Positions 34,739-43,235 of a stretch of DNA of 58,866 nucleotides are shown here, piece after piece. The stretch spans positions 1-58,866 of the forward strand of contig CAKZKT010000071.1 of NCBI GenBank assembly GCA_937124585.1, given 5' to 3'. Within the stretch, counting starts at the first letter, position 1. Each line of letters begins with the position of its first letter. This DNA is from an uncultured Anaerolineae bacterium. GTDB lineage: Bacteria > Chloroflexota > Anaerolineae > CG2-30-64-16. A program made the position numbers and the translations under genes. The notes under the pieces were generated by a model. It was not told the DNA's origin. It did no database searches and saw only the letters and a program-made list of their open reading frames with translations.

Positions 34739-34890
34739 CCGGCCCCGACATGCCCGACAGCGATGACAGGCGATGGTCTCCTCGCCCCGCCGCCCACACC
34801 CGCAGGGACGGGGAGCCCTTCGCGTCTGTTTCCCTGTAGCGGCCCTGCTATTTTGATTTGTTCGGCGTAAATGCTATAATAGTTTTATCT
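34739..34890. other. Intergenic region upstream of the repeat leader
   Basis: 152 bp between the second giant protein and the palindromic repeats. Apart from the promoter at 34853-34880 I see no gene and no convincing terminator; the first 100 bp are GC-rich and uninformative. Confidence 0.5.
34853..34880 (+). promoter_or_regulatory. Promoter of GAF kinase operon
   Basis: TTGATT (34853-34858), 16-bp spacer, TATAAT (34875-34880) with TG at 34872-34873, an extended -10. Transcription from about 34887 would place all six 46-bp repeats in a leader of nearly 285 nt. Confidence 0.75.
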
Positions 34891-35165
34891 ACGTGCCAGG
34901 CATCTTGCAGAGTGCCTGGCACGTTGGGGCGAGGTTACGTGCCAGGCATCTTGCAGAGTGCCTGGCACGTCGGGGCGAGGTTACGTGCCAGGCATCTTGC
35001 AGAGTGCCTGGCACGTTGGGGCGAGGCTACGTGCCAGGCATCTCGCAAAGTGCCTGGCACGTTGGGGCGAGGTTACGTGCCAGGCATCTTGCAAAGTGCC
35101 TGGCACGTTGGGGCGAGGTTACGTGCCAGGCATCTCGCAGAGTGCCTGGCACGTTGGGGCAGGTT
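34891..35165. repeat. Six tandem 46-bp palindromic repeats in leader of GAF kinase
   Basis: Units start at 34891, 34937, 34983, 35029, 35075 and 35121. Each holds a perfect 12-bp inverted repeat ACGTGCCAGGCA / TGCCTGGCACGT around a 10-nt loop (TCTTGCAGAG, TCTCGCAAAG, TCTTGCAAAG or TCTCGCAGAG), then a 12-nt linker such as TGGGGCGAGGTT (GAGGCT in one unit, CGGGG start in another; the last unit's linker is incomplete). The array sits between the promoter and the kinase start codon; every variation falls in loops or linkers, never in the stems. Confidence 0.95.
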
Positions 35166-37491: not shown

Positions 37492-38607
37492 ATGTTCGGT
37501 TCTCAATTGACCATCCAACAGCGCATGGCGCAGCGGGGGGTGTCACGTCGGGAATTCCTGAAGTTCTGCAGCGCCGTGGCCGCGACCCTGGCGCTGCCCA
37601 AAGCGATGGCCCCTCAAGTCGTCTATGCGCTGGAGCAGGCGGCCAGGCGGCCCCCGGTCGTCTGGCTGGAGTTCCAGGATTGCGCCGGCGACACCGAGTC
37701 CTTCCTGCGCGCCTCTCGGCCCACTGCAGCCGACGTCATCCTCGATACCATCTCGCTGGACTATCACGAGACGGTGATGGCGCCGTCGGGCAAACAGGCC
37801 GAGCGGTCGCTGCGGTCCACCGTTGACGCCGGCGGTCACATCGTGGTGGTCGAAGGCTCCATCCCCACCAAAGACGGCGGCGTCTACTGCACCATTGCCG
37901 GCCGCACGGCGCTGGACATCCTGGCCGATGCCACCCGCAAGGCGGTCGCGGTCATCGCAGTGGGCAGTTGCGCGACCTTCGGCGGCCTGCCGAAGGTGAC
38001 CCCGAACCCCACCGGCGCGGTGGGCGTGATGGATCTGGTCAAGCACATCCCGGTGGTCAACCTGTCGGGCTGCCCCATGAACGTGGTGAACTTCACCGCA
38101 CTGGTGGTGCACTATCTGACCTTCGGCACCTTCCCGGCCCTGGACCGCCTCAACCGGCCGCTGTTCGCGCACGGCCAGATCATCCACAACAACTGCGAGC
38201 GCCGCGCCCACTTCGACGCCGGCGAGTTCGTGCTGGCGTGGGGGGATGAGGGGCATCGCAAGGGCTGGTGCCTGTACAAGATGGGCTGCAAAGGGCCGGT
38301 GGCCACCTTCAACTGTCCGTCGGTGCGCTGGAACGACGGCGTGAACTGGCCCATCGGCGCCGGCCATCCGTGCATTGCCTGCGCCGCGCCCGACTTCTTC
38401 GAGCGCGAAGCGTATGCCGTGGTGGACATCCATGAGACCAATCCGCCTGCCTTCTATCCCTCGGTGGAGAAGCCGGCCGAACCGATCTCGGCCGGCGGCG
38501 CGGCGACCCTGGGCGCCGTGGGCGGGCTGATCGTGGGCGCCGGGATTGCCGCTGCGGTGGCCACGGCGCGGGGCAGCGGGAAGGCCCCGGCCGAATCGGC
38601 CGAGTAG
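37492..38607 (+). CDS. hybO: [NiFe] hydrogenase small subunit, Tat-exported, with Asp in proximal cluster motif
   Basis: 371 residues. Tat signal with SRREFLK at about 18-24, so the folded dimer is exported; a C-terminal hydrophobic helix (GAVGGLIVGAGIAAAVATA, about 343-361) anchors it. It carries the iron-sulfur relay. For the proximal cluster the usual CxGC is here DCAGDTES, Cys64 and Asp67, with the other ligands in VGSCATFG and NLSGCPMN. The distal cluster ligands are in HNNCERR, GWCLYKMGC, and the medial ones in TFNCPS and HPCIACAAP. ATG 37492 follows AGGAGG. It is first in an operon with the order small subunit, FeS protein, NrfD-like, large subunit, protease, as in E. coli hybOABCD. 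The Asp is discussed as a finding. Confidence 0.92.
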   Translation: MFGSQLTIQQRMAQRGVSRREFLKFCSAVAATLALPKAMAPQVVYALEQAARRPPVVWLEFQDCAGDTESFLRASRPTAADVILDTISLDYHETVMAPSGKQAERSLRSTVDAGGHIVVVEGSIPTKDGGVYCTIAGRTALDILADATRKAVAVIAVGSCATFGGLPKVTPNPTGAVGVMDLVKHIPVVNLSGCPMNVVNFTALVVHYLTFGTFPALDRLNRPLFAHGQIIHNNCERRAHFDAGEFVLAWGDEGHRKGWCLYKMGCKGPVATFNCPSVRWNDGVNWPIGAGHPCIACAAPDFFEREAYAVVDIHETNPPAFYPSVEKPAEPISAGGAATLGAVGGLIVGAGIAAAVATARGSGKAPAESAE

Positions 38608-38623: not shown

Positions 38624-39574
38624 ATGTCCCTCAGCCGTAGAAGCTTTTTGAAACTGGCCGGGGTCGGCGCCGCCGGCCTGGCCGCTGCGTCGGCCGGCTC
38701 CCGCCCCGCGTCCGCCGCGTCGTCCATCGCCGACGCCGCCGGCCATCCATCCATGCTCTACGACACCACCCTTTGCGTCGGGTGCCGCGCCTGCCAGACC
38801 GCGTGCCGCTCCTGGAACGAGACGAAGCCCGAACGGGACCCGGCCGGCCTCTACGATGCGCCCACCGATCTGTCCGCCGATACGTGGACCGTGATCCAGT
38901 TGTACATTGACGAGAATCGGCCCAAGCCGGCCCCTGACCGCTCCAACTGGTCCTTCATCAAGCGCAACTGCATGCACTGCCTGGATCCGGCCTGCGTCTC
39001 GGCGTGCACGGTCGGCGCGCTGGAGAAGGACCCGGCCGGCCCCGTGACCTACAACCTGGACAAGTGCTTCGGCTGCCGCTACTGCATGGTGGCCTGCCCC
39101 TACCACGTCCCGCGCTACCAGTGGTGGACCACCGTGCCGCTGGTCCAGAAGTGCACCTTCTGCTTCGGCTACACCACCCTGGCCGGCGGGACGCATCCCA
39201 AGAACCGGCTGGCGCAGGGGAAGGGGCCGAACTGCGTGGAGGCATGTCCCACCGGCGCGCTGGTGTGGGGCACCCGGCAGCAGATGCTGGATGAGGCGCA
39301 CCGGCGCATCGCCGCGCATCCCGGCAAGTACCACGAGAACCGGGTGTACGGCGAGTTCGAAGGGGGCGGGACGTTGCAGCTTATCCTTTCGCACCTGCCG
39401 TTCGACAAGCTCGGCCTGCCGAGGCTGGATCCTCATCCCCTGCCCGAGCGCACGGCGCCCGCCAACCGGGCTGTGCCGTTCGTGGTCGTCGGCGTCAGCG
39501 CGCTGGCCACCGTCATCTACAACATCCGGAGTCGCTCCGAGCGCAGCGCGGATGCGCAGGAGGGTGACAGATGA
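38624..39574 (+). CDS. hybA: Tat-exported 4x[4Fe-4S] ferredoxin-like hydrogenase subunit (HybA-like)
   Basis: 316 residues. Tat signal SRRSFLK at 4-10, then four cysteine clusters: CVGCRACQTAC, CMHCLDPACVSAC, CFGCRYCMVACP and CTFCFGY with a later CVEACPTG. A hydrophobic helix near the C-terminus (AVPFVVVGVSALATVIYNI) anchors it. It would carry electrons from the hydrogenase dimer to the membrane subunit. AGGGAGG precedes the ATG, 16 bp after the small subunit stop, and its end overlaps the next start by 4 bp. Confidence 0.9.
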   Translation: MSLSRRSFLKLAGVGAAGLAAASAGSRPASAASSIADAAGHPSMLYDTTLCVGCRACQTACRSWNETKPERDPAGLYDAPTDLSADTWTVIQLYIDENRPKPAPDRSNWSFIKRNCMHCLDPACVSACTVGALEKDPAGPVTYNLDKCFGCRYCMVACPYHVPRYQWWTTVPLVQKCTFCFGYTTLAGGTHPKNRLAQGKGPNCVEACPTGALVWGTRQQMLDEAHRRIAAHPGKYHENRVYGEFEGGGTLQLILSHLPFDKLGLPRLDPHPLPERTAPANRAVPFVVVGVSALATVIYNIRSRSERSADAQEGDR

Positions 39575-40713
39575 ATGCCTCAACGTTGCAGCGCAGGTCC
39601 ACGGGACGGGCCATCAGCACGGCCATCCCGTTGGGCACCCTGATCCTGTTCGGCCTGGTGGCGCTGGGGGTGGTCGCCGCGGTGCTGCGCTACTCCCAGG
39701 GGCTGGGCGCGACCACCAATTTGAGAGATGACGTCTCCTGGGGCCTGTGGATCGGCCTGGACGTGATGGGCGGCGTGGCGCTGGCCGGCGGCGGCTTCAC
39801 CATGGCCGCCATCGTCTACATCTTCCGGGTCAAGCGCTTCTATCCCCTGGCGCGGCCGGCCATCCTCACCGCGTACGTGGGTTACATCCTGGCCGCGGGC
39901 TCCATCCTCTTCGACCTGGGCCGGCCGGAGCGGTTCTACCACTTTCTGATCTTCCGCAACGTGCACTCCATCATGTTCGAGGTCGCGATGAGCGTCTTCA
40001 GCTACCTCATCGTGCTGACCATCGAGAACAGCCAGTGGGTGGCCGAGCGCATCCGCTGGAAGTGGTGGCTGGGGGTCCTCCGCCGCGTGTTGCTGGTGTT
40101 CATCGTGCTGGGGATCATCATCTCCACCTTGCATCAATCCTCGCTGGGCGCGCTGTTTCTGATGTCGCCGCACCGGCTGCCCGCGGTGTGGTACACGCCC
40201 CTGCTGCCGGTGCTCTTCTACGTCTCGGCCATCATGGTGGGCATGGCCATGGTGATCGTCGAGTCGCTGCTCAGCGCGAGCGCGTTCCGCCGCAAGCCGG
40301 AGCTGCATCTGCTCGGCGAGCTGGGCGGGTGGCTGCGCTACGCCCTGGCGTTCTATCTGCTGCTGAAGGCGGCCGACATCGTGATCGGCGGGGATGTGGC
40401 CCGGCTAGTCACCAGCGGCACGGCCAGCCTCTTCTTTTGGCTGGAGGTGGGCTTCGGGGTGATCCTGCCGCTGATCCTGCTGAGCAGCTCGCGCATCCGA
40501 CGGAATCGCGTGACGCTGTTCCGCAGCGCGTTGCTGGTGGTGCTGGGCGTGCTGCTCAACCGCTTCAACGTGCTGTTCTTCGGCATGGGCGGCGTGATCT
40601 ACGCGCCCACCTGGATCGAGTTCGCCATCAGCGCCGGACTGACCTCGTTCGGCATCCTGATGTACATGTTCGCTGCCAAATACTTCCCGGTGCTGGATCA
40701 GCACCCGCATTGA
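39571..40713 (+). CDS. hybB: NrfD/HybB-like membrane subunit of hydrogenase
   Basis: 380 residues, about nine or ten hydrophobic helices (for example [54 protein letters not shown] and [15 protein letters not shown]). The pattern and the [15 protein letters not shown] segment are typical of NrfD/PsrC/HybB quinone-interacting proteins without haem. It would pass electrons from H2 oxidation to quinone, or in reverse. Coupled to hybA by an ATGA overlap; the large subunit follows after 17 bp. Confidence 0.92.
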
Positions 40714-40730: not shown

Positions 40731-42467
40731 ATGGCAAAGATCGCGATAGATCCCGTGACCCGCATCGAAGGGCACCTCCGCATCGAGGTGGAGGTCAAGG
40801 ACGGCAAGGTGACCGACGCCTGGGCCTCCAGCACCATGTTCCGGGGGATCGAGACGATCCTGAAGGGCCGCGATCCGCGCGGGGCCTGGATGTTGACCCA
40901 GCGCATCTGCGGCGTCTGAACGTCGGTGCACGCCATCAGCTCCGTGCGAGCTGTCGAGAATGCCCTAGGGATCACGGTGCCGCCCAATGCCCGCATCCTG
41001 CGCAACCTGATCGGCGGCATCCAATACGTGCAGGATCACGTCATCCACTTCTATCACCTCCACGCGTTAGATTGGGTGGATATCGTCAGCGCCCTGGACG
41101 CCGACCCGGTGGCCACGGCCAGGCTGGCGCAATCCATCTCTGACTGGCCCACCAACAGCCCCGGCCACTTCAAGGCGGTCAAAGAACGGCTGGCTGCGTT
41201 CGTGCAGACGGGACAGCTCGGCCCCTTTGCCAACGCGTACTGGGGGCATCCCGCCTATAAGCTGCCGCCCGAGGCCAACCTGATGGCGGTGGCGCATTAC
41301 CTGGAGGCGCTGGACTGGCAGCGCGAGGTCATCAAGGCGCACGCCATCCTGGGCGCCAAAAACCCCCATTTGCAGACCTACCTGGTGGGCGGGATGTCCA
41401 CCGCCATTGATCCCGACAGCCAGTCGGCGCTGAACGCGGACAAGATCGCCCAGCTGAAGGGCTACTTCGCCAGGGCGCGTGCCTTTGTCGAGAACGTCTA
41501 TCTGCCCGATGTGCTGGCGGTGGCGCCGTTCTACCTGGATTGGGCCGGGCTCGGCGAGGGGATCGGCAACTTCCTGTCCTACGGCGAGTTCCCGCAGGCC
41601 GACGGCACGGATTTCCTGCCCGCAGGGGTCATCGTGAACCGCGACCTGGCGAACGTGCTCCCTGTGGATCACAAGAAGATCTCCGAGTACGTGTCGCACT
41701 CCTGGTATCAGTATGCCGCGGGCGACGTGGGCCTGCATCCGTGGGACGGCGAGACGACGCCCACCTACACCGGGCCGCAGCCACCCTACGAGTTCCTGAA
41801 CACCGGCCCCAACGACAAGTACTCGTGGATGAAGGCCCCGCGGCTGGACGACAAGCCCATGGAGGTGGGCCCGCTGGCCCGGATGCTGGTGGCCTATGCC
41901 AGGGGCCATCAGCAGGTGCAGGCGCTGGTGAACACGGCCCTGGACAGGCTCAGCGCGGCGGCCGGGGCGCGGCTCGGCCCCGAGGTGCTTTTCTCGACCC
42001 TGGGCCGCATCGCTGCCCGCTGCGTGGAGACGGTGGTGGTGGCCGGCCAGCTCGAAGCGTGGGTGGACGAGATGTCGGCCAACATCAAGGCGGGCGACAT
42101 CCGCATCCACGAGGGGAGCAAGTGGGATCCGGCCACGTGGCCTGCGGAGGCCAGGGGGTTCGGCTTTCACGAGGCCCCGCGCGGCGCGCTGGGACACTGG
42201 GTGCACATCAAGAACGGCAAGATCGCGAATTACCAGTGCGTGGTGCCCAGCACGTGGAACTGCTCCCCGCGCGATAACAAGGGCCAGCGCGGCCCCTACG
42301 AGGCCTCGCTGATCGGCACGCCCATCGCTGACCCGGAGATGCCGCTGGAGGTCCTGCGCACCATCCACTCGTTCGATCCGTGCATGGCGTGCGGCGTGCA
42401 CGTGGTGGATGCGATGGGCCGCGAGATCACGAGCATTATGGTCAATACGGCTCAGGCGTGTGGGTGA
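40731..42467 (+). CDS. hybC: [NiFe] hydrogenase large subunit with in-frame UGA in the L1 motif (possible selenoprotein)
   Basis: 578 codons if codon 63 (UGA, 40917-40919) is read through. Before it: [19 protein letters not shown] and TQRIC60GV. After it: [18 protein letters not shown] and an undisturbed frame to the end, including the L2 motif [10 protein letters not shown] (Cys551, Cys554) and a 21-residue C-terminal tail that the protease at 42651 would remove. The canonical L1 motif is RxCGxCxxxH, so UGA replaces exactly the second Cys, the one that bridges Ni and Fe. Either it encodes selenocysteine, or a one-base change (TGC or TGT to TGA) inactivated the gene or arose in sequencing. 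ATG 40731 has ACGGAGGAG upstream. If not read through, the product is a 62-residue fragment. Confidence 0.85.
40917..40919 (+). other. In-frame UGA at the position of L1 cysteine
   Basis: TGA between GGC-GTC and ACG-TCG-GTG-CAC. Translation on both sides aligns with RICGVxTSVHA of group 1 hydrogenases without a shift. It is the only stop in 579 codons of this frame. Confidence 0.95.
40937..40953 (+). promoter_or_regulatory. SECIS-like hairpin after UGA
   Basis: Stem CAGCTC (40937-40942) / GAGCTG (40948-40953), perfect 6 bp, loop CGTGC with G as second loop base. The loop begins 24 nt after the UGA. As I recall the bacterial SECIS rules (stem 4-16 bp, loop 3-14 nt, 16-37 nt from the UGA, early G in loop), it fits them. 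An alternative stem GCACG/CGTGC (40928-40932/40943-40947) competes. No folding calculation was done. Confidence 0.5.
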
Positions 42468-42468
42468 G

Positions 42469-42637
42469 GGGAAAGCGGCGTCACGACGCCGCAAGCCAAA
42501 ACGGGAAAGCGGCGTCACGACGCCGCAAGCCAAAACGGGAAAGCGGCGTCACGACGCCGCAAGCCAAAACGAGAAAGCGGCGTCACGACGCCGCAAGCCA
42601 AAACGAGAAAGCGGCGTCACGACGCCGCAAGCCAAAA
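42469..42637 (+). repeat. Five tandem 34-bp palindromic repeats between large subunit and protease genes
   Basis: Units start at 42469, 42503, 42537, 42571 and 42605 and are nearly identical: GGGAAAGC (GAGAAAGC in the last two), stem GGCGTC-AC-GACGCC, then GCAAGCCAAAAC. The array begins 1 bp after the large subunit stop and ends 3 bp before the ribosome binding site of the protease gene (GGAGG, 42640-42644). The same repeat frame occurs at 8126-8219. No spacers, so it is not a CRISPR array. Confidence 0.95.
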
Positions 42638-42650
42638 GATTGGAGGTTGG

Positions 42651-43235
42651 ATGCCAAGAGCGTTGATCCTGGGCGTCGGTAACTTGCTCCTGTCGGACGA
42701 GGGGGTCGGCGTCCAGGTGATTCAGCGGCTGCAGGAGCGCTACCGGTTGCCGGAGGACGTCCAGGTGCTGGACGGCGGCACCCTGGGCATGGACCTGCTG
42801 TACTACCTGGAGGGGGTGGAGACCCTGTTGATCGTGGATGCCGTGGAGACCGCAGGGCCGCCGGGCACGCTGATCCGCCTGGCGGGCAATGAGGTGCCGG
42901 CGTTCCTGTCGGTCAAGCTGTCGCCCCATCAGGTGGGGGTGCCCGATATGCTGTTTGCGGCCCGGCTCAAAGGCATCGAGCCGCCGGACATCGTGCTGTG
43001 GGGCGTGCAGCCGGGCTCGCTGGAGGTCGGCCTGGAGCTGTCGCCCCCGGTCGCCAGGCAGGTGGACGTGTTGGTGGAACGGCTGGCCGACGAGCTGGCA
43101 CAGCGCGGGATAGCGCCCGCTGCCCTGAAAATCATCGGGGAGGACGCCGAGGGCGCGGAGAACCTGAGAGTCTCCGCGATCTCTGCGCCCTCTGTGGTAA
43201 GATTCTCATCCGCCGTGGCACTGGCCGCGACATGA
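42651..43235 (+). CDS. hybD: Hydrogenase maturation protease (HybD/HyaD family)
   Basis: 194 residues. It would clip the C-terminal tail of the large subunit after nickel insertion. Family marks are ILGVGNLLLSDEGVGVQVI with the nickel-sensing Glu17, the Asp in VDAVETAGPPGT (about 62), and SPHQVGVPDMLF with the His ligand at about 89. The final 40 residues (IIGEDAEGAENLRVSAISAP onward) exceed the usual length; they are encoded by a stretch (CTCCGCGATCTCTGCGCCC, about 43174-43192) that looks like a dispersed low-complexity repeat, so the tail is probably not functional. The ATG follows GGAGG. Confidence 0.9.
   Translation: MPRALILGVGNLLLSDEGVGVQVIQRLQERYRLPEDVQVLDGGTLGMDLLYYLEGVETLLIVDAVETAGPPGTLIRLAGNEVPAFLSVKLSPHQVGVPDMLFAARLKGIEPPDIVLWGVQPGSLEVGLELSPPVARQVDVLVERLADELAQRGIAPAALKIIGEDAEGAENLRVSAISAPSVVRFSSAVALAAT

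What the first reader, a model, noticed from the sequence alone, without database searches (positions are those of the whole stretch)
37675..37704. Asp replaces a proximal-cluster Cys in the exported hydrogenase small subunit
The motif DCAGDTES has Cys64 and Asp67 where CxGC is usual. Other cluster ligands are intact. Asp ligation of the proximal [4Fe-4S] cluster is known from the actinobacterial-type (group 1h) hydrogenase of Ralstonia, linked with oxygen insensitivity. Here it appears in a Hyb-type operon with HybA and NrfD-like subunits and with the UGA in the partner subunit, so both metal sites next to each other are atypical.
Basis: partly seen in the sequence, partly recalled or inferred. 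Interest (0 to 1): 0.68.

Follow-up and report, generated by a model that had tools for sequence, protein, structure and literature searches.

The report
Asp-type hydrogenase with selenocysteine partner subunit
The unusual aspartate beside an iron-sulfur cluster of this hydrogen-using enzyme is real but known for its enzyme group, where that one position switches between cysteine, asparagine and aspartate; the bigger surprise is its partner subunit, where selenocysteine takes the place of one nickel-binding cysteine here and of two in many relatives.

Summary
The hydrogenase small subunit (37492-38607) reads C64-A-G-D67, and its other 11 Fe-S ligand positions are standard. The reading as something exceptional is only partly right.

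In a 101-sequence clade that also holds Geobacteraceae, Frankia and Chloroflexaceae enzymes (the lineages published as group 1f), those 11 positions never vary, while position 67 is Asn (46), Cys (37) or Asp (18). It changed at least 14 times, and a single Asp clade is rejected (p-AU 1e-38). Asp/Asn in group 1f was already reported. The window's Asp is a late change inside a mostly Cys subclade. It is neither inherited from group 1h nor universal in its group, and it is not tied to the HybA/NrfD operon. Asp67 probably ligates a [4Fe-4S] cluster as in Ralstonia HofK; a Huc-like [3Fe-4S] cluster is the main rival.

The striking part lies next door. The large subunit's second L1 cysteine is UGA. 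A hairpin with covarying base pairs follows UGA in 34 of 35 UGA-type genes and in 0 of 86 Cys-type genes. The genome carries selA, selB, two selD and tRNA-Sec. Twenty-nine of the 35 have UGA at both L1 cysteines. Known [NiFeSe] hydrogenases carry Sec in L2, so this looks like an undescribed selenohydrogenase variant.

The parts
37492..38607 (+). [NiFe] hydrogenase small subunit, Tat signal SRREFLKF, C-terminal membrane-anchor-like helix
37681..37692 (+). Proximal-cluster motif C64-A-G-D67 (Asp codon GAC 37690-37692)
38624..39574 (+). HybA-like ferredoxin subunit with Tat signal
   Evidence: Fer4_11 62.7 bits
39571..40713 (+). NrfD/HybB-like membrane quinone-reactive subunit
   Evidence: PF03916 87.5 bits
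40731..42467 (+). [NiFe] hydrogenase large subunit read through one in-frame TGA (RICGV-Sec-TSVHA); L2 motif FDPCMACG intact
40917..40919 (+). TGA codon 63 at the second (bridging) cysteine position of the L1 motif
40937..40953 (+). SECIS-like hairpin CAGCTC-CGTGC-GAGCTG, stem starting 18 nt after the TGA
42651..43235 (+). HycI/HybD-type large-subunit maturation protease
   Evidence: PF01750 107 bits

Best explanation
This is a periplasmic, membrane-coupled uptake [NiFe] hydrogenase, related to the group 1f enzymes and to their Anaerolineae sister clade. H2 is split at a Ni-Fe site in the large subunit; electrons pass through the proximal, medial and distal clusters of the small subunit to HybA and then through the NrfD-like membrane subunit to quinone. 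In this enzyme clade the second proximal ligand is an evolutionary switch between Cys, Asn and Asp. In the window it is Asp, derived from a Cys-bearing ancestor, and most likely binds the fourth iron of a [4Fe-4S] cluster through its carboxylate, as in Ralstonia HofK. That would tune the cluster potential and its behaviour under O2. Independently, the bridging L1 cysteine of the nickel site is replaced by selenocysteine, inserted at UGA by an in-gene SECIS. Shown: the motif, lability limited to C/N/D, polyphyly of Asp, UGA with a covarying hairpin, and the Sec machinery. Inferred: cluster type, potential, O2 effect, electron route, and that Sec is incorporated in vivo.
For: Window Asp and 18 of 101 relatives, all other ligands invariant. 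Same alignment column is Asp in HofK 5AA5 and Asn in Huc 7UUR. Careful tree: 101-row clade 97/87, 29-row subclade 99/95 with 22 C, 5 N, 2 D; at least 16 C/N/D changes over 105 rows; Asp monophyly rejected p-AU 9.8e-39. Clade holds Geomonas, Geobacteraceae and Frankia, lineages whose group 1f enzymes were reported with Asn or Asp (PMC5364354; PMC4070099). UGA: all L1 stops are TGA; 6-bp hairpin in 34/35 UGA genes and 0/86 Cys genes; 35 cells with compensatory change, none one-sided, 0/500 shuffles. Own genome has selA (576.9 bits), selB (350.5), two selD each with one in-frame TGA, tRNA-Sec (74.8 bits) and hypD (467.9).
Against: No structure or spectroscopy for any group 1f enzyme was found here; Asp could stay unligated and leave a [3Fe-4S] cluster. 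The mixing of C, N and D could mean near-neutral drift rather than tuning. HydDB was not run. No protein-level proof of Sec.
Confidence: 0.68

Rival explanations
1. Asp67 does not ligate; the proximal site holds a [3Fe-4S] cluster as in Huc, raising its potential and favouring H2 uptake at low H2 in air.
For: Asn in the same column of Huc, whose three clusters are all [3Fe-4S] with high onset potential (PMC10017518); Asn and Asp interchange repeatedly in this clade by single-base changes (codons AAC/GAC; changes), as if functionally similar.
Against: In HofK (5AA5), which shares Asp in this column, the cluster is a [4Fe-4S] with Asp ligation (PMC7174314 describes a specific aspartate coordinating the proximal [4Fe4S] in group 1h); carboxylate is a better iron ligand than carboxamide (general chemistry, not tested here).
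Confidence: 0.25
2. The residue was inherited from, or acquired with, a group 1h (actinobacterial-type) hydrogenase.
For: Same residue in the same column as HofK.
Against: HofK and its kin lie far outside the 101-row clade and within their own branch some have Cys (L174, L180, L181); nearest relatives of the window at 61-65% identity have Cys.
Confidence: 0.02
3. Asp67 and the L1 selenocysteine are a co-adapted pair, both needed for O2 tolerance.
For: Both occur in the window and in L023, L154, L026, L039 and L044.
Against: UGA occurs with Cys in 19, Asn in 10 and Asp in 6 rows; 10 Asp rows have no UGA. Independent pairs show no positive association and lean the other way (too few pairs to decide).
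Confidence: 0.06
4. Artefact: sequencing error or decaying operon.
For: Stop codon in the large subunit; draft genome of 164 contigs.
Against: Asp shared with an independent MAG; the frame beyond UGA is intact to L2 and the stop; the hairpin covaries across 35 genes; Sec machinery present.
Confidence: 0.02

Closest known systems
Group 1f [NiFe] hydrogenases (Geobacter, Frankia, Roseiflexus, Acidobacteria)
   Same: Clade membership or sister position; Asn or Asp at the second proximal ligand; Tat-exported small subunit (PMC5364354)
   Different: The window sits in an Anaerolineae sister subclade, mostly Cys at this position, with Hyb-like gene order and UGA in L1
Ralstonia eutropha HofK / group 1h
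   Same: Asp in the same column, CxGD
   Different: Distant small subunit with no clade relation to the window's
Huc / group 2a
   Same: Non-Cys residue (Asn) in the same column
   Different: Asn not Asp; distal and medial ligands differ (Q, L, K in Huc-type rows)
E. coli Hyd-2 (group 1c)
   Same: Gene order small-HybA-NrfD/HybB-large; nearest outside clade in the quick tree
   Different: Hyd-2 has four Cys at the proximal site and lies outside the 101-row clade
[NiFeSe] hydrogenases
   Same: Selenocysteine replaces a nickel-ligating cysteine
   Different: Known ones carry Sec in L2 (UxxC); here L2 is all Cys and Sec is in L1 (CxxU, or UxxU in relatives) (PMC13188914)

Membership tests
Group 1f [NiFe] hydrogenase | Phylogenetic position with Geobacteraceae/Frankia/Acidobacteria/Chloroflexales enzymes | tested here: met
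   101-row clade, support 97/87, excludes Hyd-2, A. vinosum and other references; the window's 29-row subclade is on the other side of the first split from the named references
Group 1f [NiFe] hydrogenase | Assignment by the HydDB classifier | not testable with these tools
   HydDB not available
Group 1f [NiFe] hydrogenase | Cys, Asn or Asp at the second proximal ligand, all other ligands standard | tested here: met
   PMC5364354
Group 1h (actinobacterial-type) | Small subunit groups with HofK 5AA5 | tested here: not met
   95.0 bits to 5AA5 against 336 to DvMF; separate branch
Group 1c (Hyb) | Gene order small subunit-HybA-HybB/NrfD-large subunit | tested here: met
Group 1c (Hyb) | Sequence clade with Hyd-2 | tested here: not met
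   NF007779 355 bits against a cut-off of 659; outside clade
Group 1d O2-tolerant (6-Cys [4Fe-3S]) | Extra proximal Cys in CTCC motif | tested here: not met
   Position 66 is Gly in 101/101; HyaA/HoxK have CTCC
[NiFeSe] hydrogenase (HysA type) | Sec at the first L2 position (DPUxxC) | tested here: not met
   [10 protein letters not shown]045518 433 bits against a cut-off of 780
Selenoprotein gene (bacterial) | In-frame UGA aligned with Cys homologues, SECIS hairpin just downstream, selA/B/C/D in the genome | tested here: met
Selenoprotein gene (bacterial) | Sec found in the protein | not testable with these tools
   needs mass spectrometry

The most novel reading that the evidence does not exclude
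A widespread selenohydrogenase variant in Chloroflexota and Nitrospirota, in which the L1 nickel ligands themselves are selenocysteine: the bridging one in the window, both L1 ligands in 29 relatives. It sits in enzymes whose neighbouring proximal Fe-S ligand also switches between Cys, Asn and Asp, giving natural double variants of both metal sites.
Probability: 0.8. Interest if true: 0.8.

Novelty: new variant of a known kind. Interest (0 to 1): 0.52.

Why it matters
Asp at the proximal cluster is already known, so alone it is a further example. What is new is that one ligand position toggles repeatedly between Cys, Asn and Asp while eleven others never move: a natural mutant series for asking how proximal-cluster type sets potential and O2 response. 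The UGA evidence points to natural hydrogenases with selenium as a Ni-Fe bridging ligand, and in many relatives two selenium ligands. The cases found here of Sec at each of the four nickel cysteines are engineered ones, in E. coli Hyd-1 and Hyd-2 (PMC11212049). A 2026 review lists hydrogenase Sec only as UxxC for the alpha subunits and calls such enzymes exclusive to sulfate reducers and methanogens (PMC13188914).

Tried and rejected
Group 1h origin: rejected by the tree. Asp universal in its group: rejected by counts. Asp tied to Hyb gene order: rejected, as the order occurs with C, N and D. Asp tied to UGA: no positive association. Sequencing error or pseudogene: rejected. Rfam SECIS_1 gave no hit in the own genome, but it also rang in no control genome, so it says nothing. 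Rfam scan of the window at gathering thresholds found nothing. No structure prediction was run: sequence homology already fixes the fold, and the tool returns no cofactor geometry. Evans 2021 (PNAS) is not held in the library; its content is cited only through PMC9961374 and PMC11212049. The AU tests were made on groups named after the states were seen, so the p values are nominal. Sampling favoured near relatives. A synonymous shuffle of the UGA genes gave a 6/6 stem in 6.6% of draws (1.2% for the window alone), so no single gene proves the hairpin; the 34/35 against 0/86 contrast and the covariation do. The stem position was chosen after looking at the UGA genes.

Full report
Observation. 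At 37675-37704 the small subunit reads QDCAGDTESF, with Cys64 and Asp67 where CxGC is usual. The protein is complete, has a Tat signal and scores 399 bits as a [NiFe] hydrogenase small subunit.

Surroundings. The order is small subunit 37492-38607, HybA-like 38624-39574, NrfD-like 39571-40713, large subunit 40731-42467 with TGA at codon 63, and HycI-type protease 42651-43235. This is the only group-1-type small subunit C-terminal domain found in the genome, and hypD is present elsewhere.

Is the Asp unusual? In 111 near loci (a few of them duplicates of one gene), position 67 is Asn, Cys or Asp. After removing duplicates and adding references, the window falls in a 101-row clade with 46 Asn, 37 Cys and 18 Asp, while the other 11 cluster ligands are identical in all 101. 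The clade holds Geomonas, other Geobacteraceae, Frankia, Acidobacteria and Chloroflexaceae. Published text says that group 1f hydrogenases of Roseiflexus, Geobacter and Frankia have this cysteine replaced by asparagine or aspartate (PMC5364354), and a 2014 survey lists G. metalloreducens Cys to Asp at proximal position 2 (PMC4070099). So Asp here is a known trait of the group. The window's own 29-row subclade (support 99/95) is 22 Cys, 5 Asn and 2 Asp, the two Asp being the window and its 75% neighbour L002, joined at 100/100. The careful tree needs 16 changes between C, N and D over 105 rows, and holding all 18 Asp rows together is rejected (p-AU 9.8e-39). The Asp was therefore gained several times and is neither universal nor inherited from group 1h.

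What the column does in solved enzymes. Aligning group 1h and group 2a relatives to their structures shows the same column as Asp in HofK 5AA5 (GLGCDGDSV) and as Asn in Huc 7UUR (GACSGNTM). Huc carries three [3Fe-4S] clusters (PMC10017518), while the group 1h cluster is described as a [4Fe4S] coordinated by a specific aspartate (PMC7174314). By analogy, the Asp form most likely keeps a [4Fe-4S] cluster and the Asn form may hold [3Fe-4S]. This step is inference.

Links to gene order and UGA. The order S-hybA-nrfD-L is found in an 18-row subclade with C, N and D alike. UGA in L1 occurs with C, N and D, and independent pairs show no positive association with a non-Cys proximal ligand.

The nickel site. 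Every stop in L1 is TGA. Among distinct genes, 29 have TGA at both L1 cysteines, 6 (the window among them) at the second only, and none at the first only. In 34 of 35 TGA genes a 6-bp stem with loop CGTGC or CGTGA starts 18 nt downstream; in none of 86 Cys genes is the stem complete. The stem shows 35 cells changed on both sides and none on one side, against 12.6 on average in shuffles (0/500 reach it). The flanking residues change with it (A..G, C..A, S..A, A..S), as expected if RNA pairing is selected within the catalytic subunit. The genome has selA, selB, tRNA-Sec and two selD genes that themselves hold an in-frame TGA. Selenocysteine is the well-supported reading. That the second L1 cysteine is a bridging Ni-Fe ligand and the first a terminal Ni ligand is established knowledge of [NiFe] hydrogenases, not tested here. 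A 2026 review lists alpha-subunit hydrogenase Sec as UxxC only and limits such enzymes to sulfate reducers and methanogens (PMC13188914). Here L2 is DPCxxC and Sec lies in L1, in Chloroflexota and Nitrospirota. I found no description of this in the library searched, which does not prove there is none.

Verdict. The Asp finding is true but mostly explained: a further case of a known, labile ligand position. The selenocysteine-bearing L1 motif, single in the window and double in many relatives, is the part that would surprise a specialist and can be tested directly.

Noticed in passing
L003 7260-7271, L029, L019 and 26 other distinct genes: Large subunits with both L1 cysteines encoded by TGA (RI-Sec-GV-Sec-TTVHA), in Chloroflexota and Nitrospirota, each with a downstream hairpin.
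   Followed up: yes
G000 contigs C137:32079-33008 and C89:3094-4026 (L121, L122): Two selD genes in the window's genome, each with one in-frame TGA, so both selenophosphate synthetases look like selenoproteins.
   Followed up: partly
window 42469-42637: Five near-identical 34-bp tandem repeats (99% match) fill the gap between the large-subunit stop and the hycI start.
   Followed up: no
window 34890-35165: Six copies of a 46-bp tandem repeat (95% match) just upstream of a sensor kinase gene.
   Followed up: no
own family: None of the nine other sampled genomes of the same family has a close copy of this small subunit; only two have a 46% one. The closest copy is in another family, which suggests transfer or patchy loss.
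   Followed up: partly
L182 (G268:C217): A divergent small subunit with GGCGGDTMS, another Asp in the same column, on a long branch near the Huc type.
   Followed up: no
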